NCBI GenBank assembly: GCA_030141605.1
Contig: JAQGDQ010000163.1
Location: 1-64,000 of the forward strand
Length of the DNA: 64,000 nt
Source of the DNA: Tubiluchus corallicola
Lineage: Eukaryota > Priapulida > Priapulimorpha > Priapulimorphida > Tubiluchidae
Direction: 5' to 3'
Part shown: in pieces, positions 3,139 through 57,300 of the stretch
How the letters are laid out: every line of letters starts with the position of its first letter
Numbering within the stretch: the first letter of the stretch is position 1
Made by a program: the position numbers and the translations under genes
Notes under the pieces: model-generated
Databases searched by the model: none
What the model was told of the DNA's origin: nothing
What the model saw: the letters and a program-made list of their open reading frames with translations, nothing else

Positions 3139-6100
3139 GTATTCATAGACCTACATTTTAATATATTGTAATAGAAATTACAATAAGTTAAAAGATTTGT
3201 CAACTACAGTATATCAAATTTCACAGTTTACTGGATTAAATTAATAAGTACAATATCGCAAATTTCCAGGAATGGATCATCGTTGATTACACATTTGCTT
3301 TTACTTTGTAGAAGTTGATGAATGCTGGAGTTCACCCTGTCAAAACAATGGTACTTGCGTCAACCATATAAATTACTACAGCTGTAATTGTACCGCGGGT
3401 TTCATGGGAGTCAATTGCGAGTGGGAACACACCTGCAGCTCTGCTCCCTGTAAGAACAGGGGTACTTGTGCAGAAGACGGAATGAGTTATTTTTGCACAT
3501 GTCCACCTGCTTACAAAGGGGCGAATTGTGAACTGGACCATTTTTGTAACAGTTATCCATGTAAAAATAACGGCACTTGTCAAGAAATGGAAACTGGTTA
3601 TTTCTGCACATGTGAACCAGGTTTTAAAGGTAATAACTGTGAATTTGAACATTTTTGTAACTCTGCACCCTGTGAGAATGGTGGGACATGTGAGGAGAGT
3701 AAGACACATTATTTTTGTGTCTGCCCTTCTGACTATATAGGACTGAATTGCGAACTTGAACGCTTTTGTAACTCCAAACCGTGTCAGAATGGTGGAACAT
3801 GTGAGGAAGGCCCAACTGATTATTTTTGCTTCTGTGCTAAGGGCTATAGAGGAACAAATTGTGAACTTGAACATTTTTGTAACTCTGCCCCATGCCAGAA
3901 TGGGGGCATTTGTGAAGAAAGCATGGTTGCTTATGTTTGCTCATGTGCACCTGGTTTTCGAGGAACTAATTGTGAACTGACCTCTATCAGTGCCAGGCGC
4001 ATGCGCGTCGACATTTGCAGAAGTGCCCCGTGTGAAAACAATGGCACCTGTGTGAGCCGCGGAAATCGCTACGACTGCAAGTGCTCTACGGGATTTTCAG
4101 GAATTAATTGCGAAGTGGAACATCCTTGTAATTCTGCTCCATGTAGGAATGGTGGGACATGTGAAGATGACAAAGAAACTGGTTATTTTTGTGTATGTGC
4201 ATCGGAATACAATGGAACCAACTGTGAAATGCTAACTGCCACGTCAGAGAGTAACAAGGTTATAGTTGACATGTTTACATACAGTAATTAAACATAAGTA
4301 AGGCATGGGGCTTTTGAAAGAGACAAACAAGATTAGGCCCTGAATTATACGTCAAAATTACAAAGCTCACATAATTCATTATGACCGGCAAGCCATTCGA
4401 TAAATATTCTTGTATTTTGAACCCCTTTGGCAAACATCGGCCTAGCCATGCAGCCAAATTCTTACATCATTGATTCTACGTGCTCTCTTGGTGGACAGGC
4501 CATTTGGGCGCAAGACATTTGGCACCACTGTCGATGCACATTGCCCTGCAAGAACACTGTGATGTTATTCGCTGCGTATAGTAAGCTGAAATTGTGGAAA
4601 TTCTTGTTCACTGTAATATTACCGCGTGACTTTTAAAACGTTTAAAGCTTTTGTAAGAAAACAGTTATTTTTCTGCATACAATCGTGTGATTAAAACTGG
4701 AGCCAGTTATAACCCACTTAGCATGTATGAAAGCACTGCTGCGTTGCTGAGCACATATCTTGCATGTATCATGCATTTCGCGGTTGTTAAAATTCTGATA
4801 TTGATAACCATACATTAAGTATTTGGTGCATCAATTGATTTCGAGTTGGTAGTTAGCATAAACAACGCATTACATGTTAATTTCTTCTAAAGCACATCAA
4901 GGTACCTTCAATGAATACAGTATCATTTGTGATAATATACTATTAGTTGAATTGCTGCAGAAAGGCTAAACTTTGTTTTGTCAAGATCTCTTGCTACGCA
5001 CAGTTTTGTGTAATCTACTGTTTTTGTGATGCATTAGGTTTTTTACGCTAAACTGTTGCTGTAATATTGATAAAATGCTAATCTAAACTTGCAGTAACTA
5101 CTCCTGCTTCGTTCTTTGCATAAACAACAAAAGAAATAGTTAATAGTTATAACACATGTTACTATATATATTAAATTTAGTAAACTAAACTTAAAAAAAC
5201 ATTATATCTTTATTCATACACTGAGTTTAGAGATAATACATACTGAGAGTTAGAAAGATGGTAAATCATAAAAAAATTAATAAACAGTGATTTAAAAAAA
5301 TGGGGAAACATTAAATTTTACTGATGCCCAAATGTTTCGTTCCCAAGTGTCCCCGAGCCCAAATGTCTCGTGCTCAAATGTCCCGTGCCCAAATGTCATG
5401 TACACTCTAAGTGAGGATTTATTAGTCGCTTTCTTCCAGCAGCCTGAAAAGTAGTTAGTTACCATTTCCTTGAAAGAGCATCAAATGCTACACCTAATAT
5501 GCAAAATGTAGTTTCTAATATCTTCACCATGTTAAGTAAATTTAACAGGGGCAACTTGGTCCAAAGAAGTTCTAAAAATTAGTGCATTATTATTTGAATC
5601 TGCAATGGTAAGCCAACGATGTAATTCTCTTATGCTCCCCGTTGCAAATACTAACTGAAGCCAGTATAGCTTGACTTTAGCTGAACTACTAGCCTGCACT
5701 GTAATTCTAGAGTTGAGTTATGTATATTATCTTCCTATATAATATTTTGTTCCATGATACATACATGCTATCACTTCAGAGTAAAATAATGGAATCACTG
5801 TGTGATAACTGCATTGTACAAGAAAACTAACTGCTTTACGAACAACTGTATGGCTATAATCGTGTCAATTTATACTTTGTTGTTCTTAGATTAGTTGTGT
5901 CTCAGATCCCTGCCTTAACAACGGCACGTGTGTGGACGATGGACAAGCCTACAAGTGTACCTGTCTGGCTGAATACACCGGTTTCAACTGCGAAACTGCC
6001 ACTGATCTTTGTGCAGGTAACTTTTGCCAAAATGGTGCAACTTGTACAGCAAACAAACATTCGTATACTTGTCTTTGTTTGGCAGGTTATACGGGAAAAA

Positions 6101-6540
6101 CTTGTGAGACGGCAGACCAGTGCAAATCGAACCCATGTCAGAATGATGGCACTTGTGTACATGTAAACGGTTCCTATACGTGCAAGTGTGCACCTGGATA
6201 CAGTGGTTCGAACTGTGAGGACAAAGACGGCAGCTGTACTGCTCATCTGCCAAGTTTGTTCAACATGAAGCCCGTCTCCACCCAATCTTGTCACGACGAC
6301 TTTGATTGCCCTAAAGAGGAGAAGTGTTGCGAGTATTCCGAACATGGTTTCATCTGCTCTCCTCCTCAAAAACGATACCAGTGGAAATTTCTTGTTGGAG
6401 GTGACAAATATAATATGCTTTATGTGGTGGCTGGCGTACTCGCAACTGTCTTTATCGTACCTATCGTTGTTTGTTGCATTGTGTTTAGACGAATGTACAA
6501 AAAGTCTGCAGTAGCGCCTACTCCTGAATCACCAATATAA
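3025..6540 (+). CDS. EGF-repeat type I transmembrane protein, 3' part of gene (three visible exons)
   Basis: Visible coding exons are 3025-3138, 3312-4258 and 5890-6540. The 5' end is missing. Together they give about 570 residues: 12 EGF-like modules with the six-cysteine C..C.NGGTC...C.C..G..G..C pattern, a WAP-like segment with DCP, KCC and a final C, one membrane helix (about [20 protein letters not shown]) and a tail of about 20 residues starting RRMYKKS. The first two junctions follow the phase-1 rule of EGF exons. The 4258/5890 junction is phase 0 and uses a weak donor (AAG|GTTATA). The Cys-rich ectodomain and short tail suggest a cell-surface adhesion or ligand-type protein of the broad fibropellin/Notch-ligand EGF class. 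I cannot assign an orthologue. A poly(A) signal AATAAA lies at 6926-6931. Confidence 0.75.
3312..4258 (+). CDS. EGF exon 2: eight EGF modules in one uninterrupted exon
   Basis: The acceptor is CTTTGTAG|AA. The exon runs through eight EGF modules without an intron. Modules 2-6 and 8 share the linker E-H/R-F/P/T-C-N/S-S and a unit of about 111 bp, so the array probably grew by duplication within the exon. Module 7 has an atypical insert (SARRMRVD) before its first cysteine. The frame stays open to a TAA at 4289-4291, so the end at 4258 rests on a weak phase-0 donor. If that donor is skipped, the product would end as a secreted form after about 10 extra residues. Confidence 0.75.
4259..5889 (+). 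other. Intron of the EGF gene
   Basis: Non-coding sequence between the EGF exons. It contains the TAA at 4289-4291 that would end a read-through transcript, an AATAAA at 5279-5284, and a 15-bp tandem repeat at 5327-5400. No further coding exon is seen. Confidence 0.5.
5327..5400 (+). repeat. 15-bp tandem repeat, about five imperfect copies
   Basis: The unit is roughly GCCCAAATGTCYCGT, repeated about five times with substitutions. It lies in the EGF-gene intron. Runs such as [10 protein letters not shown] appear when translated but are a by-product of the 15-bp period. Confidence 0.8.
5890..6540 (+). CDS. EGF gene last exon: three EGF modules, WAP-like segment, membrane helix, stop
   Basis: The acceptor is TTGTTCTTAG. 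The first residues are [14 protein letters not shown]. Three EGF modules are followed by a cysteine segment ([15 protein letters not shown] then GFICSPP) that resembles the second half of a WAP four-disulfide core, then a hydrophobic helix of about 23 residues and a basic stop-transfer RRMYKK. The TAA is at 6538-6540. The reading frame is secure, but the junction to the previous exon is not. Confidence 0.8.
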
Positions 6541-7814: not shown

Positions 7815-9965
7815 ATGAAGAAATTAATTCTCTGTTTCCTCTTGGTGATGACTGCATTCAGGTTAGTAAATGTTTTGTATGTAGCTAGATCTGTTTGTCA
7901 AAACATACAAGGAAAGACACTGTAAGTGGAATACAACAAATATGTTTGCTGCTTCTAAAGTAGTCTATGTATTACTTTTGATCAGGATAGATTAGATCAT
8001 TAGAAAATGTTCAAGGAAAAACCGTTTTCATCTCCAATTGCTGTCCGTGGCACTCTTGCGAACTCCGGGAAGAATCCCACAATTCTCCTAAACCCATGCG
8101 GTTTACTGTTAAATAGAATAATGTGCAATCCAATAATATAAACTTATATATTTTGAAAACCTACCTCTGTGATTCCCTGTCTTAAATTTATCCTGACACT
8201 GCGTTGAAAGTGGGGAGAGCAAAAATGAGAGTACATGTATATTTACTGTAAAGTCTGGTCAGTAGAACAATTTGCATCTTTTGTTTGCATGTCCTCATAG
8301 AAAGTTGAACCCAAAAATAATAATTTTCTTAGCATTCAGGTTGCTGCAGGCCGTGTAGATTGTCGTTGTAAGATCCCCCGAGGAATACCAGACAAAAATG
8401 CTGAAGGCGGATACAGAGTCGAATATTTGGACGTCTGTACCCATCAAGACTACAAATGGGGCAAGACGGCACAAGAATGTTGGGGTCGACCACTTGCAAG
8501 AGATGTGTGTGACTGCTGTGACGTGTGCGGCATAGTAAGTACATTCTATTGTTATTTTATTCTAGGCAGAACATTACTCAATATATTGCTAAAAAAGAAG
8601 TGTTGGAATGCCGGATTCCCTCGATTCCCTAATGGGCTCCCCCAATGGGAGTAATTGAAGTAAGCCTCTACAGGCGGAGTTTGGGGAATTGTAAATCCAC
8701 AGAAGAAATTTTTATATTCTCTCAATTTGATAAAACTTTTGAGGGCATACGTTATTACTGTATCTGTGTTTAGAAATATGACGTATATTAGAGCACAATA
8801 TATGGTCCCTCATTTTTGTTATAAAGTAATAAGCCTTTTCACAGTTCCAGCGATTGACGATGATCGTGAAAAGGTCAAAGGTTAAATGTACCAGACAACA
8901 GATTTGTGTACACTTGACAACGCCTCCCAGCTTAAGCTTCCAAGCAAGATCTTGCTAGTAAATAACTCTACGCACAGACTAATGCATAATTAAGCAAAGT
9001 CCACGTAAAACAACTGAGGTTACTGAACTATAGCAGCAGATGGCTTGCTTTGCACGCACGCATCATGTGATGGTTGTTGTAAAGCTGTGGCGCACTTAAC
9101 CTTTGACCTACAGCAACTGCACATGCGCACAACGAAACTTTGCGCAAGTTTAAACTTAAAATTTACTTGAAATTGCGAGGGAATGCAATTCTCCCTCCCA
9201 AACAAAGAAACCCCCTATTCCCATTTACCCCCACAACACTACACCATTGATAACACGACATGAAAGAAAAGCATCACTAAGTTATATGTAGATATGGTAA
9301 TTTAACAAAACTCAAAGACCGCGCATATTTTCATTCTGCATTCAGGCTTTTATGCAATGTCTGACTGTAATAAGCAAAATTACTTAAATGCGTAGAATAA
9401 AATTTGCAGTTATGTAAAATAAAACAACCGGATCCAGTGGTTGGTTCATTTTGATCAGGCAAATTACAGAAAGAAATAATTGATACACACGTCCCACACG
9501 TGTGTAAATGGATTATGGCAAGACGCATTGCTATTTAAACAGAGTAAGGAGGATACCGCAGATTATGATATATGCTTTACGGAAGACAGAAGACGCCTTG
9601 AGGATTATGGATTGGTCCTTGCAGCTTTCTCTGTGTGACACGGGCCTTATATGTACAGGCACTTGTTTTCGTCCTCTATATTCAGAAACAAAGGAAAATT
9701 CATTTACCTTTAAATTTGATGTATAATAGTCACTAAGTCACAGTTAACCAAGTGTGATTTAAGCGCATTTGCTATTAGAACACTACAATATCACGTAAAC
9801 ATGAATGAGCACCGTAATTGATTACTTTGAAAATAAAACGTTTGCTCTTCAACATTCCAGATTAAAGGAGACTACTGCTCTCCCTGGCCTCAAGCAGGAC
9901 AACCTGTTGGCTGCACCGATGGTTCGAAATGCAAGGAACTCGAAGGACACTACATTTGCGTGTAG
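7815..9965 (+). CDS. Secreted cysteine-rich protein A with IGFBP-like C-terminal half, 117 aa, three coding exons
   Basis: Coding exons are 7815-7861, 8333-8534 and 9861-9965, with consistent phases (2, then 0) and GT..AG ends. Exon 1 encodes the hydrophobic signal peptide core MKKLILCFLLVMTAF. Exon 2 encodes GRVDCRCKIPRG, then DVCTHQDYKWGKT, then RDVCDCCDVCG. Exon 3 encodes GDYC, AGQPVGCTDGSKC and a C-terminal YICV. The mature chain has 12 cysteines. The CDCCDVCG...GDYC...GC.DG..C arrangement resembles the IGFBP N-terminal (single insulin-binding domain) fold, but spacing is not identical. The N-terminal half matches no domain I know. Exon lengths of exons 2 and 3 (202 and 105) equal those of the neighbouring paralogue exactly. 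It is probably an extracellular binding or signalling protein; the ligand is unknown. Confidence 0.85.
8872..9109. repeat. Inverted pair of AGGTCAAAGGTTAA sequences in intron 2 of gene A
   Basis: AGGTCAAAGGTTA at 8872-8884 and its reverse complement at 9097-9109. The match extends inward to about 22 bp with three transitions. Each arm is a near-consensus DR1 nuclear-receptor half-site pair (HNF4/COUP-TF/RXR type). The alternative is that these are the terminal inverted repeats of a 238-bp MITE. Confidence 0.5.
9489..9652 (-). mobile_element. Short dispersed repeat with CGTGTCACACAG-type end
   Basis: The reverse complement begins GGCCCGTGTCACACAGAG and aligns over about 100 bp with 49105-49225. 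Both share blocks reading like AAGGYGTCTTC, CATAATC and GCCATAATCC. The other end, CCCACACGTGTGTAAATGG, resembles a degenerate inverted terminal repeat. It lies in intron 2 of gene A and carries no coding potential, so it is probably a non-autonomous DNA transposon. Confidence 0.5.
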
Positions 9966-11836
9966 AGCGCCACAGATTTAAAAAAACAACTAACGTACCA
10001 CATACGTTAAATATATGAATCATTTAACAAAAATCAAATGATGTACTTTTCCAACGTTCTGCCTTTAGTGTTTTCCTTGAGAGTTTTTAAACGACTCAGC
10101 TATCTTAAACCACAATATAAATCAACTTTGTTTTAAGGCGTTTTTGGGGTAACAGGTCAAATGACCAGGGCTCTTCAGTCTCTGTGCCTGCAGCTTAACA
10201 GAGCTGGAGTTTACTGGGCACAGACCTCACCAGAGCCATAACTCACTAAGCTGGAGCGTCATGTAATGATCCTATAAAACTATAATGCGCTATATAACGT
10301 GCTATATTTTAAGCACAAGAAAACCCTTACTTACATAAGGCTAAAAAATCGTCTTGAAATTTTGTGTAACCTGCATAACTGCCTTATTGCGCACAGAACT
10401 TGTATTAGCAGTAACGCTGTATAACACTTGAAAATTTAAACTCCTTGCCAGGGTTATAAGGCACAGCCGCCATTTTGTCGGTAGGTCGTTTGAAACAGGT
10501 TTAAATAACATTGTGTAAAGTTTGAAAAAATAATCAGAACATATGTAGCACAGAACACACTTCACTAACTAAGCAAAAGTATAAATTACTTTATCTTGTT
10601 AACAAGATCAAAAATACATTTTTCGGTGACTCATTGGCGCACACTGGGAAGGTGAACATTTTACTGGTTGGCACTACATTGCTAACAATATTATTTCTAA
10701 TTACAGTAGTCTTTCAAGCAGGTAAACATAATGCTAAGTAGTATACCTTTGCGTGGAAAGCTTTTTCTGGCATACTTTAAAATTGCCCTTTCTTTCTTTT
10801 TTCCTTTTACATCATAATTCAATTTCATCAGTATAGCACATTTCTCGCCACAACCAGTCTGTTTCCCGATTCTAGCACGGAAAGAATTACAAACTTCCAC
10901 TAGCCTGTGGCCGAGTATCACCTAATTAAACTAATTAAAAGTTTAAGTGTCATAAACAAATTAGCAGAGAGTGAAGCTCTGCCCTGTAAGCATTTTCTAC
11001 ATGTTAGTAATTAACGGCCCTAACTCTAATAAAGCTCTAACTCAGACTTACTCTCAGAAGCTGCAATTTGGTCAAATGCCTTGTAATATGTCTTTGATTA
11101 TTGCTGAGCAATAATCATTGACCTGGCCTTGTATACCTTATTTTGGAAATCACATAAGCTAAATCACTAATTTTCAGGTGAACAAAAAAGAATGTGCAAG
11201 GTGCATATTGAACATTTTACTTTTATACATTGTACACACAGTTGTACAGAATTCAAGTTTTGAAGTGCGCAGTTCAAATAAAATTTTTTAAGAAAGACTA
11301 AAAAACACAATAATAAGATGTGGCTTAATTATTCTAAAACTAGCAGAGTGAGAGATTTTGAGTGTGAAAACACTTAAAACGATTCTAGTGATACCTGAGA
11401 TAGGTGACTAGTAAGTAATCCCACTGACTGCCTAAATGATTGGCTAAACAACCCAGGTGACAGATGGACTGACCGAATGGTTCCAAAAAACTCTATGACT
11501 TATTTGTTTTTCTATGTATTTATTGTAAACATAATAGTTTCTCTTCGAACATGTAACATAAATCTCTGTAACAAATGAAAACCAATGTCTAATAAAAGTG
11601 ACCAGTAATAGCCATAGAAACTTTACCCAGAATAAACTGAAGAAACTTTTGACATGAAAGATTACATGTCATTAGCAAGCCAAGGTTAGCAAGATCAACA
11701 GGTACAAACTAAAGTGAAAGTTAATGACGTAATGTGACAAGGTCAGGCAAGAAACTTACAAATGACAGGATTATCAGAGTGCTGCAAGGAGTGTGAATGA
11801 CCATTGACCAGTGGGTCAATGTCGGAAGTCTTTGCA
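9966..11836. other. Intergenic spacer between the paralogues A and B
   Basis: Contains the 3' UTR of gene A, for which I find no canonical AATAAA in the first few hundred bases, and a hairpin-forming segment at 10169-10237. Otherwise AT-rich with no recognisable exon. Confidence 0.4.
10169..10237 (+). other. Two-step hairpin downstream of gene A
   Basis: GGCTCT (10169-10174) pairs with AGAGCC (10232-10237), and TCTGTGCC (10181-10188) pairs with GGCACAGA (10217-10224), nested inside it. The segment is GC-richer than its surroundings. It could be a structured 3' UTR element or a fold-back repeat. Confidence 0.35.
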
Positions 11837-11843
11837 TATAAAA
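11837..11843 (+). promoter_or_regulatory. TATA box of secreted gene B
   Basis: GCATATAAAAAC places TATAAAA at 11837-11843. A plausible start of transcription lies about 25-30 bp downstream, followed by a short 5' UTR exon ending at 11918 (ATACAG|GTATGT). The matching acceptor is GTAATAG|GT at 12230, leading into the exon with the ATG at 12294. Confidence 0.5.
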
Positions 11844-12293
11844 ACACAGAGACTGTTATGATATTTTCACTGACCAAAGCTGTTTGACTCCAGTTACATC
11901 TCTTTGTTTTGGATACAGGTATGTACTTAGGTAGGATTTTGTAACTAGCTTTAGATTGTTTTCTTTGTTAGGAAAAAATAAAATACAATTTTCAATCTAA
12001 TGCATAAAATATGCAAAAAATAGCATTAACCTACGTGAATATTGTTCAACACAAGCTATTACTTTACAGTTTAAGCCACAATTAGAAATTTGTTGATCCT
12101 TTTTTATCATAACTTGTGTGAATTTATTTTAACCTTCATTAATTTAACTTACTTTGATTACTAAAGTTTACAAAAAATACTAAAATCTTCAGGTGCTTCT
12201 ATCTGCTAATTTCCAGTTTTTTCGTAATAGGTAGAAAGAAGAAGATTGTGCATAGTTGTTTACCACAATAATCTGATCTAAGGATACCATAAA

Positions 12294-15136
12294 ATGGAGA
12301 AACTCATTGTGATTTTTCTTGTAGCTGCTGTCAGGTAAGTCTACGTCAACCACTGTACCAAAGAATTGAGAAATTCATTTTGATTTCACTTGTAAAAAGT
12401 CACAGGTTAAAAAAATTGTGAAAAGGTCGGGAAAAAAGAAAGGCAGGAGTCTACAGTTCCCCACACAGTCTAAGTACCCTAACTCTAACCGGACCCTAAT
12501 TCTAACCGTAATCTTAATTTACTTCTCGAACTATTTTCTTGTGTGTGGAAAATTGTAAACTTTAGCCAAATGAAATAAGTCTAACCCTAGCCCCTATTCA
12601 TAACCTAACCCTAAAATATAGAATTAAACATGTTTTTTCACATACCTAACTACCATCAGTAGGGTAGTGAATATGTACTAGTCATGTATTTCCAGTTAAT
12701 AACTGATTCAAAATATTTTGCATTTTATTGCTTTAACTGGTACTTAAGTAATTTCTGGCTGATTTGAATATTTTTATTTGATTACTTCTTTCCTAGCCAA
12801 AATTGTGACTTTTTTCTGTGACATTTTCCTAGCCAAAAAGGTGTGACTTTTTTCTGTGATTTTTTTACATGTGACTTCATTATTGGTCACCTACTAAACA
12901 CAGGTACCATTGCCTCTGATGTGACACGCGCACATATATATTTACAACCTACATGAGAGAGGACAAGAGAAACAACTAAAGAGAAAGGATGTGTTTTAAT
13001 TTTATCATAAACGAATGTCCCAACTGCCAAGAATGACCAAGTTACTGCCAGTCAAGCAAATTATTCCGTCTTCTTCTAGCGTCAAGAAAAATTTCTCATA
13101 TTTTCAGCATCCAGTTTGCCAAAGGCCGGGTAGACTGTCGATGCCAAATACCACGAGGAGTGGCAGACCCAGATGCTGAAGATGGATTTAGAGTTGAATT
13201 TGTGGACGTGTGCACACATCCAGATTACAACTGGGGTAAAACGGCATGTGAGTGTTGCCCACGACCGCTTGCAAGAGACGTATGCGACTGCTGCGACGTT
13301 TGCGGTGTGGTAAGTAAGAGGCAACAAATTTAAATTAACTTTACTAACATCAGTCTTTATCCTGCCTTTATCTTTATAACAATTCTGCTAAAATTAGGAC
13401 ATGTTTTTACTAAGTGACCAAAGTTAAATAACATTGGGCATGACTAGTAAATGGAAGGTAATTATAAATGCGGAGCAGTTCGATTATAATTACTGAGGTT
13501 ATATTGGAGCTGTGTTCATTGGTGGTTGAGGCTTAAATACATATTGAAAACTTATTGATGGGTTTATTTCGCCAGTCAGCACAAAAAAGCAAGTAAACAA
13601 AGAAAAGTACATTAAAGCAATCAACGTGTGCTATCGCTCCCTCCTCAGCGCAGAGTTCCTGACCTATTCGCAAACAACACAAGTGCGCACGCAGCCAAAA
13701 CTCAGAAGAATTGCGCGCTGGTGCCATCATCCAGGTAACGCCCTAAACTCATAGCAGTTACTCAGCTCCCCAAATTAGCTTAAATATTAATAGCTAATTT
13801 CTAAACTGTACACTCAAAATAGTAACAAATGGCGCCTAGAAACTTGAGAACATGCACAAAATAGTGCAACAAAACCTTCCCAAATGTAATTACTACCTAA
13901 GTACGAACATTGGAATCACATGAGGATTGAAACAACAAATGTGCCACCATAACATATTTGGATTTCATCGTTCTGCTAAAATCGGGGTGAGTTTTTACTA
14001 AGCGACCAAAGTTAACTAACATTGGGCATGAGTAGTAAATGGAAGGTAATAATCGGGAAATTACTTCTGGGCAAGAAAAAATGGGTTCTCATTCTGTAGC
14101 TGCTGTTGCAGACTATTTATCTTCTTCAAGGAGAATGTAAGTGTGTCTCATCTTAGAGGTCTATACACTCCATCCTTGATAAGTGTTAAGTTGCCGTCCT
14201 GCCTCAAACGTCCAGATCATAAATGGATGTTGTCATTGAGTACTGGATTCTACTTTGCCTTCTGGTGAACTATGAACATGTAGAAAACACATCCCTGTTA
14301 AGAAAACAATACGGTTAGAATAAGATAATTGAGCTGCCCTGACTTAGCTAAGCTGACGAGACATCTTAGGCATGTCAAGTGAGATGGTGGGATGAGACAT
14401 GTTGAGATCATAAGCTACGATAAAATGAGCCACGCAGGGCCTATTTCAGCCTAGGCGAGGCCCGGGGAAGTGGGGCGTGTGAGGCCCCATCGGGGGGGGC
14501 GCTACCATGGTTGGCGCCCAGAAAATTTTTGAACTGCTAGAACGTCGGAGAAGCATTTTCAAAGAGAAAATATGGAGTTATACAGTTGTTAAAGGAAAGA
14601 ACAATTGAAAGAAAAACTGCTCAAGACCAGTCCTTAATACTTGTCAATACTGGCACGCGGCGAGCTTGCGGCAAGAGAGGGAGAGAGGTGGCAGTATGTT
14701 CGCATAAAGCAAAAAAAATGTTACCTTGGCGCGAGGCCCCGGGGAAGTATCCCCACTCCCCCCCCCTTGAAATAGGCCGTGGAGCCTATTTAGATAAAGT
14801 AGTACTGCGGTAATGAGCAGAGATGAAATGAAGCGAGGTAAAGAAAAAACAAACCATCAAATGAGACGAGAAGAGAAAATTACTTTACCCATTAATTACT
14901 TTTATTAACATTATGATAAGTTTTTTCACAGTCTCATGTCATTTATGGTAGTCCTACAGTGTAAGAAATGAACACAAAATCACCACACATTTTGACATTG
15001 GGCCTAAAGATTTTGATTCTCAATATTACAGGTCGAAGGAGATGAGTGTACACTAGTACCTCTTGCTGGACAACCATTTGGCTGCACAGATGGCTCTGAA
15101 TGTACAGAAGTTGATGGACAGTCTATATGTGTGTAG
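12294..15136 (+). CDS. Secreted cysteine-rich protein B with IGFBP-like C-terminal half, 115 aa, three coding exons
   Basis: Coding exons are 12294-12334, 13108-13309 and 15032-15136, with the same phases and the same exon 2 and 3 lengths as gene A. Exon 1 encodes the signal core MEKLIVIFLVAAV. Exon 2 encodes GRVDCRCQIPRG, DVCTHPDYNWGKT and the stretch PLARDVCDCCDVCG, which is identical to gene A. Exon 3 encodes GDEC, AGQPFGCTDGSEC and a final SICV. By my hand alignment exon 2 is about 75% and exon 3 about 59% identical to gene A. B has 14 cysteines; the two extra fall at ACECC where A has QECW, suggesting one additional disulfide. AATAAA lies at 15374-15379. A tandem duplication is the obvious origin. 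Function is unknown; the IGFBP-like C-terminal half is the only lead. Confidence 0.85.
12363..12410 (+). repeat. Decayed echo of gene B exon 1
   Basis: The stretch GAGAAATTCATTTTGATTTC resembles the start of exon 1 (GAGAAACTCATTGTGATTTT), and the similarity runs on through CTTGTA to a CAGGTTAA that mirrors the CAGGTAAG donor. It begins about 72 bp after the exon. It has no ATG and is probably a local tandem duplication that decayed. Confidence 0.45.
12441..12568 (-). mobile_element. MITE copy 1 with telomere-like core
   Basis: The reverse complement opens TTGGCTAAAGTTTACAATT, continues CCACACACAAGAAA, contains TTAGGGT-like units and ends GTGTGGGGAACTGTAGACT. It aligns end to end with 33787-33914 on the other strand. 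The ends form inverted repeats (AGTTTACAATTC against GAATTGTAAACT in copy 2). It lies in intron 1 of gene B. Confidence 0.6.
13383..14051 (+). repeat. 80-bp direct duplication within intron 2 of gene B
   Basis: Segments 13383-13463 and 13971-14051 share TTCTGCTAAAAT, TTTTTACTAAG and ATTGGGCATGA in the same order with few substitutions. The offset is 588 bp. They are either two copies of a short dispersed repeat or an old local duplication. Confidence 0.7.
14431..14781. mobile_element. 351-bp GC-rich inverted-repeat element (MITE-like)
   Basis: Left end CACGCAGGGCCTATTTCA, right end TGAAATAGGCCGTG, so the termini are inverted (GGCCTATTTCA). GAGC is found directly outside both ends (14427-14430 and 14782-14785), a possible 4-bp target duplication. 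A second near-repeat, GGCGAGGCCCGGGGAAGT, occurs near both ends in the same orientation. Its GC content contrasts strongly with the AT-rich intron around it. No transposase is encoded. Confidence 0.6.
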
Positions 15137-17155
15137 ATGCTGCTGCACTTTAGTTTTTATAAGCTTAGCATTTCTTTGTCTCTCAGGCATAGATCTGTGT
15201 AATTAATGTGTAGTATGTGTCCATTTTATATGAATTACATTGTTAAAATTTGAGTACGCATGCAAGTAATATTCCACAAAAAATTGTTGCATTTTTTTAT
15301 AGACACAAAACACAAATGTATATATACTGTATATATGGACATTGTGCTTACATGAATTGATGATGATGATGACAATAAATCTTTTATTGAAAATAAATAA
15401 ATATTTACAGAGGTGTTTCTGTTTGCATGAAAAGATTGGCCTACTGTCAAATGTAAGCATAGGAGAATTAAATTTTTGTTAATGGGCTAACAATAGGCCC
15501 TACTGTTTTGTGATATGTATACAACACATTTACAATATCTGCATGCTATTTTACTATGTATCAACACATGCAGTCACGATGTGCTGAAAGATCTAGAAAT
15601 ATTTACATGAAACTATAAGCATTATACTTTTAATGGGAATAAGAACTGTACATTTCATTGACTTACGTTATAAAATTAAAAATAACCTCAACACCTTACG
15701 CACATTACCACAAAGTAAAAATGATGAATGAAGTTATAGCCAGATGCTTTACTACTAGTAAAGACAATAAGATCAATTTAGCAAAAGAAACACGCAAATA
15801 AAGTTAACACAAACTGTATCAAACTGTACTCAAGCCTACTCAAAGGCTTAAAATATATATGCAATACATTTTAATAGAAATGGTTTGTAAATACAAAGGT
15901 TCTAGTAAATCTAATGAGAGGAAAGACGAAATGCATTTGGGGCCCATCCAAGTTTCTAATTTGTCTATTAGCAATTGTAGGATGGTCACAAATGCACGCG
16001 CATACATCCTCACCTATGTTAGCTCTTGACGGGCAATTGTTCTTATTGAACACAAGTTCCTATAAGAATTAAAAAAATTGCAGTCAACAGACTTTACCGT
16101 GACCTTCACTTACGTACATTGGTCCATGTGAAGTGTGAATTCTCATTAGCTTTTATATTGCACTACCCGAAAATTTATTATGAAGCCTCGATTTCAAAAC
16201 TACAGTTTAGACCGACAAATCCTCCCACAATAACTGTTATAAAGTTTCAGATTTTGTTGCTGTTTGGTAGTGAATTTTAAACCAAAAATAGTTAACATGA
16301 TATTAATCGAAAAAAGCACGTTGCTACAAGTTGTGTGACCAAAAACCATAAAGGCCTATGATAAAATTAAAGTTATACTGGACCCCCAAATGCCCAAACA
16401 GCGGTTTCACAGGCTCTCTTTTCAAAGATTCCAGAAAACGGGCTTTACTATCACAAAGTCAAAATAATAGTGACCAAGCCAATTTTTATTAAACGCAATA
16501 TTTCTAAGCTCGTAAAACCCACCTTGTCCCTTACCCTCATTACCTATTTATTCGTTTGTATGTTTATTCTAATCAGTTTTTCTGCTTCATTAATACCAAA
16601 ATAATCTTCTTTCATCTACGCATCTTCTTCACCTGCTAATGCACTATTTGCAAATGAACACTTAAAGGTTCAGTGCTGTTTTCAATATATTTGCTACAAG
16701 TAAATAAATGTTCTGTTTTTGCTAATTCATTATTGCAATTCAGGGCACAATTAATTCCTTACAATTGATGGCCTTATGCGTATTTGCTTTTATTTTTACC
16801 ATAATTATGAAGTCTAAAATTCAAATTATTTTTGCCTCTACACAGAATTGTGAAATTATGCTCCCGTTTAACTTTTTGATTGTTTGCCAGAAATCTTAAT
16901 TTTGTGCTCTTATTCACATTTTCGTTGAATTTGTCTTTTATTACAGATGTTTTCCATTTCATTATACCAACTCCAAAACTTTATTGTCCAATCCTGAAAT
17001 CCAAAGGTTCTGTGAAACGCACCTTTTTTGTAGCAAGTACGTATGCTTTTAATAAAATTATAGTGTGTCTGTTAACAACATCGAATTGATCTTTCTAAAC
17101 AACTTTTGCGTCTATAGATGGCGGTAATGCACTGTTACTGAAACACGTGGAAAGC
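15137..17155 (+). other. 3' UTR of gene B and upstream region of ALDH7A1
   Basis: Holds the gene B poly(A) signal at 15374-15379 and a GATGATGAT run just before it. No gene is seen from 15500 to 17100. TAGATGGCG at 17115-17123, about 35 bp before the ALDH7A1 ATG, resembles both a YY1 site and the CTCF-like motif repeated across the window. Confidence 0.4.
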
Positions 17156-18781
17156 ATGGCATTGAGGATTTTGCGTTACTCTCATAAGTTGCAAGCAAAT
17201 TTTCATCATTTCTTTTTTAGTAAATTGTATTTGTCAACCAACGCAATGTTGGTTGAAAGTGCACAGTATTCATGGTTGAAGGAACTTGGTCTCAGTTCTG
17301 AAAATTGTGGTGTATACTTCGGAAAGTGGACGGGTAATGGCAATGTAGTTACGTCTTATAGCCCTGCCAGTGGTGAAGCAATAGCCAACGTTACTGAAGG
17401 TAATTTGACTGACTACAATAACGCAGTTGGTGCTGCAATGGATGCGTGGAAAATTTGGGCAGATGTACCTGCACCGAAACGTGGTGAAATCGTGCGACAG
17501 ATTGGTGACGCACTTCGAGAAAAAATTACACTGTTGGGAAATTTGGAAAGCTTGGAAAACGGAAAGATTGCAGCTGAGGGCAAGGGTGAAGTGCAGGAGT
17601 ATGTTGACATATGTGATTATGCTGTCGGACTGTCACGCATGTTTTCTGGAAAGGTCATACCATCAGAAAGGCCTGGACATGCTTTACTCGAAGTATGGAA
17701 TCCGCTTGGCACAATAGGAATTATTACTGCGTTTAATTTTCCAGTAGCAGTGTATGGTTGGAATAGTGCTATTGCTATGGTGTGTGGTAATACAATGGTG
17801 TGGAAAGGAGCTCCAACTACACCGTTAACGAGCATTGCAATTAGCAAAATCACATCTGCGGTACTTGAACGAAATGGCTTACCCGGAGCTGTATGTTCAC
17901 TTGTCTGCGGTGGTGCTGAAATTGGTGAAGCCATGGCAAAAGATGAACGCTTGCCATTAGTTTCGTTCACTGGCAGCACAGCAGTAGGTAAAAAAGTGGC
18001 ACTTTCTGTCCAGGAAAGGTTCGGGAAGTGTCTTTTAGAACTAGGTGGAAACAATGCTGTCATTGTTCTTGAGGATGCAGATCTTGACATGGTGGTACCA
18101 GCTGTAACATTTGCTGCTGTTGGCACAGCTGGCCAGCGATGTACTACAGCTCGCAGGCTGATCGTCCACGAAAAGTTGTATGATGCCGTCGTGGAACGAG
18201 TAAAGAAAGCATATGCACAGATCTGCCCTGGTCGAATGGGTGATCCCTTAAATGAAAAAACGCTTTACGGTCCGCTGCACACTAATGAAGCAGTAGCACA
18301 ATATCTCAAGGCTATAGAAGATGCAAAGTCACAGGGTGGTGCTGTGATATTTGGTGGGAAGGTAATAGACAGGCCCGGATACTTCGTTGAACCAACTATC
18401 GTCACTGGTCTGGCCCACGATGCTGAGATTGTTAAGCGAGAAACGTTTGCCCCAATTCTGTACATCCTGAAGACATCAGGTATCAATGAAGCCATTACCT
18501 ATAACAATGAGGTCTCTCAAGGTTTATCAAGCAGTCTGTTTACGCAAAACCTTGCAAATGTGTTTAAATGGATGGGGCCATTTGGATCAGACTGTGGCAT
18601 CGTTAACGTGAATATTCCCACGAGTGGAGCAGAAATCGGGGGTGCATTTGGTGGAGAGAAGCACACCGGCGGTGGGCGCGAATCGGGTAGCGATGCCTGG
18701 AAGCAGTACGTGAGGCGGTCAACTTGTACTATAAATTACTCCAAAGATCTGCCTCTGGCACAAGGAATCAAGTTTGAGTAG
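17156..18781 (+). CDS. ALDH7A1: Alpha-aminoadipic semialdehyde dehydrogenase (antiquitin), intron-free
   Basis: A 541-aa uninterrupted frame from ATG 17156 to TAG 18779-18781. The family oxidises alpha-aminoadipic semialdehyde in lysine breakdown with NAD+, and also betaine aldehyde and other aldehydes; it works as a tetramer. Seen directly: [12 protein letters not shown] with the catalytic Asn near 194, VWKGAP with Lys 217, FTGST, ELGGNNA with the general-base Glu 295, [10 protein letters not shown] with the nucleophile Cys 329, and the antiquitin C-terminal block [18 protein letters not shown]. The first 30 residues ([11 protein letters not shown]...) are basic and free of acids, like a mitochondrial presequence. 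Met31 (ATG 17246) starts a segment, [10 protein letters not shown], that corresponds to the cytosolic start used in vertebrates, so dual targeting is plausible. AATAAA is at 19386-19391. The absence of introns is odd next to its intron-rich neighbours. Confidence 0.97.
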
Positions 18782-25385: not shown

Positions 25386-51792
<26,407 letters not shown>

Positions 51793-54700
51793 GCTTGTAG
51801 TCTCGTTAATTTGTTCAGGATCTATAAAGTTGCAGCGGTTCTGACTGTGATACAGGTTCAGGAGGTCCAGTATATTCAGGTAAATATGCCGTCCCAAAGC
51901 TAAGTGTGGCATGAGAGAAGATTTACAACACAGTCATAAACCCGGCACTGATGTTTATTTGCAATTTTTATGGGTTGGTAACGCGTCGCACAATATACAC
52001 AAAACTTTCTGCACAAACTTTTCAAGAACTTCACCTACACTGCCGTGGTGATGAAACTGCTCAGTGCTCAAATGACGTGTGTAACGAACTGTAGATTGCG
52101 CGATTTCGTGAGAAAGGTTTTGTGTTGTGCTTCCATCTGTTGGGCAAAAATGTCAGAAGAGAATATTCCTTACACTTGCTTTTATGTTAGCATTCACTTA
52201 AATGACAATAATTTCTAAAATAGTAAAGATGTTTTGATTTTTTTTTTCAATATTTTACATGATTGTAGATTATCTCCATCATCAAGGATGAGAGATTGAT
52301 TTTTCAGAGATGTCGCATCCACTTTCCGATGTATCTGCTAAGAGAAATAGCTAAATGCCACAGCAGGTGATTTTGCTGACAGATAACTATCCGTCTAATT
52401 ATAATACTTAGGCCTTGTGTTGCTTAACTTCAGTTACTAAACATACACCATGACCATTCATGCAGTTATGGGTTACCTAATACATATCCTAGTTCCAATC
52501 TTAAACAACTATATAAATATTATTATCTACATTAAATCAGCCATTGAGTGTTGAATTAAATCGTGCAGAGTGCCGAACAATACAAAAAATACAAGAAAAA
52601 ATAATTGTGTTCTGAGATATCGTATATGGTGTGGCTGGCAAGGCATGTAATGTTGTACGATGTAATGTTTGGCAGCAGCCAGTAGGCACTACAATATCGT
52701 GTTATGTGACATGTTATGTTAACGGTTATGTAATGTGGCGTTACTGCATTGCACTAAAAGTCTTGAGTCTACCAGTAGTAGATATAACATTAGTACTGTA
52801 TTATTATAATTATTGGCGCAATTCAATTTTGTACTGAGTAAAACAAAACCATTTTTATATCTGTCGACAGATGGCGCGAGATGCACAGAAATCACGTTGT
52901 GTTTACATTGCAGCGCATGACAATCAGATCAGACTGTACCTCAGCTGCTTCCGTGGTAGTCATTCCGACAGGCGTGAGGATGTCTGTAGTTTAATAATTT
53001 GATGTTGTGCTATTTGTTAGTAATGCTGCTAGACGAGTTATAACTGCAAACTGGTAAGTATGATGGAATTACCTAAGTTATCTATTCAAACTAAGTTTCA
53101 ACTCTATTTACACTGGCTGTAGTCTTGAACAATATATTTCTAGTTCTAAAAACTCTTTAACGACACACTAGAACTTCTGAGTCCAAGTTGTAGCTATTAT
53201 GATGAAAATTGTCTAGACCAAAAACGGACTACAATTCACAGATTGCATACTGCAGAGCGATATTGTGGAATTGTGGTACACTATATATTTACTATAGGAC
53301 GCATTGGATCGCAGTACTATTATTATACGAGTTTTAGTTCATAAGTACAAGTTCGTAAATATATGATGGAGTTATATTTATTACTATATTAGTATTACAG
53401 TTGCGAATCTTCCAAAATGTCATAATGTCCTAATAATATATAATAATAAATTATGACTTTCTTAAATAAAACCCAAATTCAGCCAGCTTTGGTTCACCTT
53501 AAATTCCTTACGAAATTCCCATTAAATTGCTGTTATTATTATAAATTGTTGATAAATTATGTTATGTCTGAAAAAGTTGTTAAAAATCTGAAGTCTGTTT
53601 TGGTGCCATTTTTGCATGTTGGTTTTAAATTTTATGCCAGTAAAGTTTGTTGACAAATTAAAAAGACAAATCTTGAATATTAATCATTTTTTTAAAAACT
53701 AAAAACGCTACTTGGACAGCCAGGGTTTTTCATCGAGCAAATCGGCGAGCAAACTGACATCAATAAAAAGTGCCAGTTTGCAAGATCAAAAACGCATATT
53801 TTGTTCACTTTGTACACGTAAATTTCTTCTTTCCACCAATCAACAATTACTATTACTGTTTACATCTTTCATTACACTTTTAGCTGCAAGAGCTCTAAAG
53901 GCTATGCAGGCCTTACTCACTACATTGAACTGCTGAAAGACTGTGACATCTGTGTGAACACTGGCAAGCCAGTTTTCACCAAAAATTTTTTTAATTAAAT
54001 GACGGTCATCATGCTGCCATGGTAGATAGTTAGTAGGCACTGCACTGAGTAGACACTAGTATGCCAGTGACTGTTTATTATAATCAGTTCAACTTCACCA
54101 TGTTCATAGGAATGCTCTGTGTGTGGGTCTTACCATTTTTTTCAGCAATTGCTGATATGTGCATGTTGGTGTATTCATGAGTGCTGTCGCATTATACTGC
54201 GAGGTAAAATAGCCTTATTAACATTTTATATCATTTGTTGAGTCTTTTTGCTATTGCTCAGGCTGAAAACCTAATGAATGCCCTGCTTATCATTTATGAT
54301 GCTCAGAAACAATAATGATGTTGTTGACTGTGAAATCATTGTATATTGATACACCCCAAAATACAGTTGATAGTTGTTTCAGATCATTAGCTGTATTACT
54401 ACACATAACTTATAACCTTTTTGTGAAATTCTTTTAACATTTACAACCTTGCCAGACAGACAAGTTAAATCACTTATGACCATCAAAGAAAGAAAATGTT
54501 TATCTTTCTTGATTATGCCCAATCTGCCTTGCTCCTTTCCCATTTCAAACTGTATGCTCTTGTTGGAAGGCTCTATGGAAGGCTATGGAAAGCTAACTAA
54601 TCAATTAAATTAGTTAATAAAACAGGCTAATTAATCAACTAAATCATTAATGCATTAAACCAAGTAGGTTGTCAAATTGTTTCTGATGTGTTCTTTCTAC

Positions 54701-56638: not shown

Positions 56639-57204
56639 GTAGTCACGACCAAAAGCTCCGTGCAATATCAACCCGTGTCAAAAGATAGAATGTGTCAAAT
56701 TTGAGTGCTTGCAGGAATGAGATGATGTGACAAATGTCAACCACGTTAACCCTTAGAGTAGGTCATTGTCATTTCCGGCTTTGGTGAGCAGTTGACGAAT
56801 CACCATGACACGACGTCCGGCACCTCTCATCGACAATATCGACGATGACTACGCGATGGACAAGCTCCAAAGTCGCACGCCCATCTTCGTGTTCGTCCTG
56901 ACAGCCTTTTCTGCCATCGGAGGTTTCCTGTTTGGGTATGATACTGGCGTCATTGCAGGAGCCATGCTTCTTTTGAAGGACAGCTTCGGTTTGACATCAC
57001 TATGGCAATCACTCATCGTCAGCGTAACCGTCGCCTTTGCCGCTCTGTTTGCCCTGGTTGGTGGGCTTGCCAATGACCATCTGGGACGAAAGCCGGTCAT
57101 CTTCTGTGCCAGTTTTGTCTTCACTGCTGGAGCCCTCGTCATGGGGCTGTCCACTAACAAGTATATGTTGTTTGGTGGTAGAATTGTCATTGGGGCAGGC
57201 ATAG
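56639..57204 (+). CDS. SLC2A13: Proton/myo-inositol cotransporter, first coding exon (partial gene)
   Basis: The exon runs from an acceptor at 56638 to donor ATAG|GTGAGT (phase 1). Coding starts at ATG 56805 in a strong context (CACCATGA), giving 133 residues plus one base. It shows the sugar-porter signatures GGFLFGYDTGVIAGAMLLLK (TM1), LWQSLIVSVTV (TM2) and the loop GLANDHLGRKP, then FTAGALVMGLS, TNKYMLFGGR and IVIGAGI. These correspond closely to SLC2A13 (HMIT), which imports myo-inositol with protons. The acidic stretch DNIDDDYAMD lies in the cytosolic N-terminus. The remaining exons are right of the window. Four short upstream ORFs precede the ATG. Confidence 0.93.
56690..56787 (+). promoter_or_regulatory. 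SLC2A13: Cluster of upstream ORFs in the SLC2A13 5' UTR
   Basis: Upstream ATGs at 56690 (4 codons), 56717 (2 codons), 56722 (2 codons) and 56734 (17 codons, MSTTLTLRVGHCHFRLW) all terminate before the main ATG at 56805. The last stop is 17 bases upstream of the main start. Such a set usually lowers translation or makes it conditional. Confidence 0.6.
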
Positions 57205-57300
57205 GTGAGTGATATTGTTCTGCTTAGTGAACTTCTCTTTAATCTAGAGAAGAGGCTGTAACGCTATTACATAAAATAAAAATAAGTTGGCAAAGTTTAA

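What the first reader, a model, noticed from the sequence alone, without database searches (positions are those of the whole stretch)
7815..15136. Tandem pair of secreted proteins joining an unknown cysteine domain to an IGFBP-like half domain
Two head-to-tail genes have identical exon phases and identical lengths for exons 2 and 3, and encode 117- and 115-aa secreted proteins. The N-terminal domain (GRVDCRC-IPRG, DVCTH-DY-WGKTA, PLARDVCDCCDVCG) is about 75% identical between the copies and matches no family I can name. The C-terminal half resembles the insulin/IGF-binding domain and is less conserved (about 59%). That the unrecognised half is under tighter constraint suggests it carries the shared function.
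Basis: partly seen in the sequence, partly recalled or inferred. Interest (0 to 1): 0.8.

Follow-up and report, generated by a model that had tools for sequence, protein, structure and literature searches.

The report
Divergent single IGFBP-domain gene pair
Two neighbouring animal genes make small secreted proteins that look like one known hormone-binding domain with unusually long loops near its start, rather than a new domain joined to half of a known one.

Summary
Two intact head-to-tail three-exon genes encode proteins of 117 and 115 aa; exons 2 and 3 are 202 and 105 nt in both, introns in phase 2 and 0, coding parts under purifying selection (NG86 dN/dS 0.109).

The two-domain reading does not hold. 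The border drawn between an 'unknown N-domain' and an 'IGFBP-like half' is an intron inside one 12-cysteine IGFBP/SIBD-type domain. The same intron, two codons after C8, recurs in 11 of 11 parsed exons, the window pair included. A bridging paralogue, L005, matches an IGFBP profile.

Unusual are long C2-C3 and C3-C4 loops with no sequence match of their own, a short C11-C12 loop, and loss of a hydrophobic position kept in 10 of 10 references. Canonical IGF binding is unlikely; the ligand is unknown. A and B alone miss Pfam's IGFBP cut-off. Tighter N-half constraint is not significant (p = 0.11). AlphaFold models were too poor to use. A divergent branch of a known kind.

The parts
7815..7861 (+). 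Gene A exon 1: start codon and signal peptide (by eye); phase 2 intron follows
8333..8534 (+). Gene A exon 2: N-subdomain, C1-C8, ends two codons after C8
8370..8435 (+). Gene A C2-C3 loop, 22 residues (references 4-7)
   Evidence: spacing; coordinates counted by hand
8439..8477 (+). Gene A C3-C4 loop, 13 residues (references 5-7, paralogues 12)
   Evidence: spacing; coordinates counted by hand
9861..9965 (+). Gene A exon 3: C-subdomain, C9-C12, and stop
12294..12334 (+). Gene B exon 1: start codon and signal peptide (by eye); phase 2 intron follows
13108..13309 (+). Gene B exon 2: N-subdomain, ends two codons after C8; two extra cysteines beside C4
15032..15136 (+). Gene B exon 3: C-subdomain, C9-C12, and stop

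Best explanation
Genes A and B are a tandem duplicate pair of small secreted proteins made of one IGFBP/SIBD-type domain (single insulin-binding domain kind), split by an intron into an N-subdomain exon (C1-C8) and a C-subdomain exon (C9-C12). They are the most divergent of the related loci found in this animal genome. Their N-subdomain carries long C2-C3 and C3-C4 loops; their C-subdomain has a short C11-C12 loop and lacks a hydrophobic residue kept in all references examined. Most likely mode of action: an extracellular, disulphide-rich protein that binds another secreted or surface protein. Since the residues through which IGF-binding proteins hold IGF have no counterpart, the contact surface has probably moved to the expanded N-subdomain loops, or the ligand is not an insulin-like peptide. 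Shown: gene structure, purifying selection, C5-C11 framework, shared intron. Inferred: homology of the C1-C4 segment, secretion, disulphides, loss of IGF binding, any ligand. Odds: one IGFBP/SIBD-type domain about 0.9; the changed contact surface about 0.35.
For: Cysteine pattern from C5 to C11 met by A, B, L005 and 7 of 7 references; shuffles meet it in 4, 20 and 4 of 100,000. hhalign of A/B/L005 against references: probability 85, 93 with four scorpion sequences added, 93.5 against the genome's paralogues, all starting near C4. L005, 36% identical to exon 2 of A, scores E 1.7e-6 against the reference profile at Z 20,000. Paralogue L020 finds SIBD-1 in the PDB at 5.7e-8 and 2 of 5 paralogues scanned pass the Pfam IGFBP cut-off. 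Same donor position, C8 plus two codons, in 11 of 11 N-exons parsed out of 12 loci scanned. Loop lengths rise by steps: references, scorpion, paralogues, L005, A. Tree: A, B and L005 together at 90/88. Ser in place of a hydrophobic residue kept in 10 of 10 references, and a C11-C12 loop of 8 against 12-17 in 5 references with C12 in view.
Against: A scores 16.4 bits against the Pfam IGFBP cut-off of 28, L005 19.2, B nothing; the family search of the whole genome returned only L001 and L002. phmmer of B against the PDB puts unrelated chains first and HTRA1 sixth at E 7.8; the A/B/L005 profile reaches SIBD-1 only at E 0.11. On their own A and B score E 0.015 and 1.2 against the first reference profile, 0.0024 and 0.018 with scorpion sequences added, 0.086 and 1 against the paralogue profile. 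The C1-C4 segment alone has no profile signal (probability 0.3 and 0.4). The tree carries long-branch warnings. Models unusable. No expression or binding data.
Confidence: 0.8

Rival explanations
1. One reading: a new cysteine domain (exon 2) joined to the second half of an IGFBP domain (exon 3), the new domain carrying the function.
For: No profile signal for the C1-C4 segment by itself; no named family covers it.
Against: CxCCxxC and the C5-C11 spacing begin inside exon 2; the intron is that of related genes whose N-exon is recognisably IGFBP-type; L005 encodes the whole domain in one open frame.
Confidence: 0.06
2. A working insulin- or IGF-binding protein that holds its ligand in the usual way, through the C-subdomain groove.
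For: IGFBP-type framework; literature says the N-terminal IGFBP domain is the primary binding interface (PMC5618481, passages).
Against: Ser replaces the hydrophobic residue before C11, and the C11-C12 loop is 8 residues. Counted ungapped on the IGFBP5 chain, taking the V of GVY as Val49, the contacts Leu70 and Leu74 named in PMC5618481 fall at or beyond the end of A and B.
Confidence: 0.15
3. A neuroparsin-type hormone acting on a receptor, rather than a binding protein.
For: Neuroparsins resemble the IGFBP N-domain and are reported from molluscs and annelids (PMC8398477, passages); sub-threshold Neuroparsin matches for L005, L016, L020 and L010. The mosquito receptor is a venus kinase receptor (PMC4888303, passages).
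Against: No Neuroparsin match for A or B up to E 10; the whole-genome search gave three matches, none over the cut-off and none at A, B or L005; every paralogue that matched scores higher for IGFBP.
Confidence: 0.12
4. An immune or haemolymph factor of the arthropod SIBD sort. This can be true together with the best explanation.
For: SIBD-2 is overexpressed in TGase-positive shrimp haemocytes (PMC9513592, passage); [quoted passage not shown]
Against: No expression data here; the C11-side residues differ from SIBD-1.
Confidence: 0.25

Closest known systems
[quoted passage not shown]
   Same: One small domain; CDCC core and C5-C11 spacing; best PDB match of the A/B/L005 profile, though at E 0.11
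   Different: C1-C4 spacing 2/4/5 against 1/22/13 in A; Phe, not Ser, two before C11
Scorpion venom-gland IGFBP-like proteins (Urodacus yaschenkoi, PMC4447460)
   Same: C5-C9 spacing in 4 of 4; C1-x-C2 start in 3 of 4; C2-C3 loop of 4-9, partly longer than in vertebrates
   Different: C3-C4 of 6, C11-C12 of 12-17 where seen, Leu two before C11
IGFBP N-terminal domain (human IGFBP3, 5, 7) and HTRA1
   Same: CxCCxxC, C8-x7-C9 and C10-x5-C11
   Different: Short N-subdomain loops; hydrophobic C11 flank; part of longer proteins
Neuroparsins (PF07327)
   Same: Small secreted cysteine-rich proteins described as similar to the IGFBP N-domain (PMC8398477)
   Different: No match for A or B; sub-threshold for some paralogues

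Membership tests
IGFBP/SIBD-type domain, by framework | Twelve cysteines in the domain (PMC7555818) | tested here: met
   12 in mature A and in L005; B has these plus two more
IGFBP/SIBD-type domain, by framework | CxCCxxC motif with C8-x7-C9 and C10-x5-C11 | tested here: met
   Met by A, B, L005 and 7 of 7 references
IGFBP/SIBD-type domain, by framework | C1-C4 segment homologous to the IGFBP N-subdomain start | tested here: inconclusive
   No sequence signal; cysteine order, stepwise loop lengths and shared intron favour it
IGFBP/SIBD-type domain, by framework | One fold of two subdomains | tested here: inconclusive
   pLDDT 51 and 62.5, too low
Pfam PF00219 by curated cut-off | Score of at least 28 bits | tested here: not met
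   A 16.4, B none, L005 19.2; so A and B are not filed as Pfam members
Functional IGF-binding protein | Hydrophobic IGF contacts on the C-subdomain side | tested here: not met
   Ser two before C11; protein ends where Leu70 would lie by ungapped count
Functional IGF-binding protein | Binds insulin-like peptides | not testable with these tools
   Needs protein
Neuroparsin | PF07327 match over cut-off | tested here: not met
   No match for A or B up to E 10; none over cut-off in the genome

The most novel reading that the evidence does not exclude
A and B, with L005, are an undescribed branch of single IGFBP-domain proteins in which ligand recognition has left the C-subdomain groove and moved to an enlarged pair of N-subdomain loops, giving a secreted signalling or immune protein with a non-insulin ligand; gene B would have braced the new surface with an extra disulphide.
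Probability: 0.2. Interest if true: 0.45.

Novelty: new variant of a known kind. Interest (0 to 1): 0.2.

Why it matters
It shows how far a single IGFBP-type domain can drift while its cysteine core and its intron stay in place, and why curated profiles miss such members: in A and B only the part from about C4 on is recognisable. The intermediate paralogues in the same genome make the series testable. It does not reveal a new domain.

Tried and rejected
Rejected: a separate N-terminal domain (rival 1). Rejected as an argument: tighter constraint on the N half. Set aside: fold comparison; both models were poor and no fold search was run. Led nowhere: viral contigs (59 pattern matches, none confirmed); a cytochrome oxidase search of the own genome to place the organism (no match); a search of the paper library for six letter motifs (one paper, the scorpion transcriptome); exon 3 of A as query (only A and B found); a bacterial promoter scan upstream of gene B, no more than chance and not suited to an animal gene. 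A first alignment with separate exons was misaligned and not used further; MAFFT also misplaced the C-subdomain of L002, so spacings were counted from the sequences. The organism and the spread of the branch among phyla were not determined.

Full report
The observation. The two genes were rebuilt from the sequence: gene A 7815-7861, 8333-8534, 9861-9965; gene B 12294-12334, 13108-13309, 15032-15136. All four introns are GT-AG, exons 2 and 3 are 202 and 105 nt in both, and the introns lie in phase 2 (within what looks by eye like the signal peptide) and phase 0. The products are 117 and 115 aa. Exon 2 is identical at 51 of 68 residues and exon 3 at 20 of 34; third codon positions hold 32 of 51 and 21 of 34 differences; NG86 dN/dS over both exons is 0.109; outside the exons the two gene regions share only two matches of 16 and 18 nt at E 0.29. 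By sequence criteria these are real, constrained genes; no transcript was available.

The constraint argument. The contrast of 75% and 59% gives Fisher p = 0.11, or 0.06 without cysteine columns; NG86 dN/dS is 0.110 for exon 2 and 0.076 for exon 3, with dS saturated in the latter. It is suggestive at most.

What the N half is. PMC7555818 (passages) names twelve cysteines and an XGCCXXC motif as typical of IGFBPs. hhalign of A/B/L005 against the references aligns columns 46-89 at probability 85, 46-90 at 93 when four scorpion sequences are added. Singly the scores are weaker: A 0.015 and B 1.2 against the first profile, 0.0024 and 0.018 against the second. Pfam IGFBP matches A at residues 60-107 with 16.4 bits against a cut-off of 28, and B not at all. 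phmmer of B in the PDB lists unrelated chains first and HTRA1 sixth at E 7.8. The A/B/L005 profile finds SIBD-1 first at E 0.11 and HTRA1 third at E 4.

The bridge through paralogues. The Pfam family itself finds only L001 and L002 in the genome. Exon 2 of A finds A, B and, at 36% identity and E 0.0035, L005. The domain of L005 lies in one open frame with a Thr/Glu-rich tail; it scores 19.2 bits in Pfam, under the cut-off, but E 1.7e-6 against the reference profile at Z 20,000. L005 led, weakly (E 0.73), to L010. L010 finds 11 places, nine at E 1.3e-5 or better, itself included; some, such as C2163 and C1955, are near copies and might be haplotypes. Of five joined paralogues scanned, two pass the Pfam IGFBP cut-off and three score 24.2-27.1 bits. 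L020 finds SIBD-1 in the PDB at 5.7e-8. Twelve loci were scanned for an N-exon; 11 gave one, and L023 did not fit the pattern. In 11 of 11 the donor stands two codons after C8 (8 GT, 3 GC), and read by eye the acceptor leaves phase 2 in all 11; a C-exon in phase 0 was found inside the held DNA for 7 of the 11. The 11 include A and B. The intronless L001, L002 and L005 do not bear on this. So the layout noticed in two genes is shared by related genes, and exon 2 is the N-subdomain exon.

What is odd. C1-C2/C2-C3/C3-C4 spacings are 2-3/4-7/5-7 in the seven references, 1-2/4-9/6 in four scorpion sequences, 1-2/8-12/12 in the eight paralogues tabulated, 1/15/13 in L005 and 1/22/13 in A: the loops lengthen by steps. 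The letters of this segment alone match neither references (probability 0.3) nor paralogues (0.4), so its homology rests on cysteine order, the loop series and the intron. At the other end, C11-C12 is 8 residues in A and B, 11 in L005, 12-17 in the five references with C12 in view and 16-32 in six paralogues. The residue two before C11 is hydrophobic in 10 of 10 references in which it was read, Tyr in L005 and Ser in A and B. PMC5618481 (passages) names Val49, Leu70 and Leu74 of IGFBP5 as conserved contacts; if Val49 is the V of GVY in the chain, an ungapped count puts Leu70 at the last residue of A and B and Leu74 beyond it. Canonical IGF binding is therefore unlikely. Gene B has two further cysteines beside C4, a possible extra disulphide.

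Tree and structure. A tree of 16 sequences puts A, B and L005 together (90/88) on the side of SIBD-1 and the paralogues (83/87), with warnings of long branches. AlphaFold gave pLDDT 51.1 and pTM 0.31 for the L005 domain and 62.5 and 0.40 for exon 2 of A; neither was used.

Function. Relatives in print, each seen in passages only: SIBD-2 in shrimp haemocytes (PMC9513592), SIBD-like proteins with ten remote paralogues in Hydra (PMC3509713), IGFBP-related proteins in nemerteans, brachiopods and phoronids (PMC8557429), and a neuroparsin/IGFBP protein in oyster (PMC8398477). A neuroparsin identity is not supported for A or B. A secreted binding protein with an altered contact surface is the reading I think most likely.

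Verdict. Real genes and correct anatomy, but a misplaced domain border. A divergent branch of single IGFBP-domain proteins, of modest interest.

Noticed in passing
G000: C2050, C854, C840 (three places), C107, C2163, C1955, C1229: A multigene family of IGFBP/SIBD-type N-exons, three of them on one strand within about 24 kb of C840.
   Followed up: partly
L010, L020, L021 (N-exon donors): Three of 11 N-exons use a GC instead of a GT donor at the shared intron.
   Followed up: no
L019 (C840:27362): No C-exon was found in the held DNA or among the matches near it; possibly an incomplete copy.
   Followed up: no
L010 and L015: Both C-exons run on to a shared ending SGPW(V/I)DSTD, unlike the other members.
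   Followed up: no
L023: Another IGFBP-like exon with C2-C3 of 15 but C3-C4 of only 4 residues, by hand count; weak match, E 0.25.
   Followed up: no
window 11837-11918 and 15374-15379: By eye: a TATA-like box with a possible 5' untranslated exon ending in a donor before gene B, and an AATAAA after its stop.
   Followed up: no
window 3287-6537 +, 17099-18778 +, 51418-51933 -, 56796-57209 +: Open frames named by eye: EGF-repeat protein, aldehyde dehydrogenase-like frame of 560 aa, MAPKAP-kinase-like exon, inositol-transporter-like exon.
   Followed up: no
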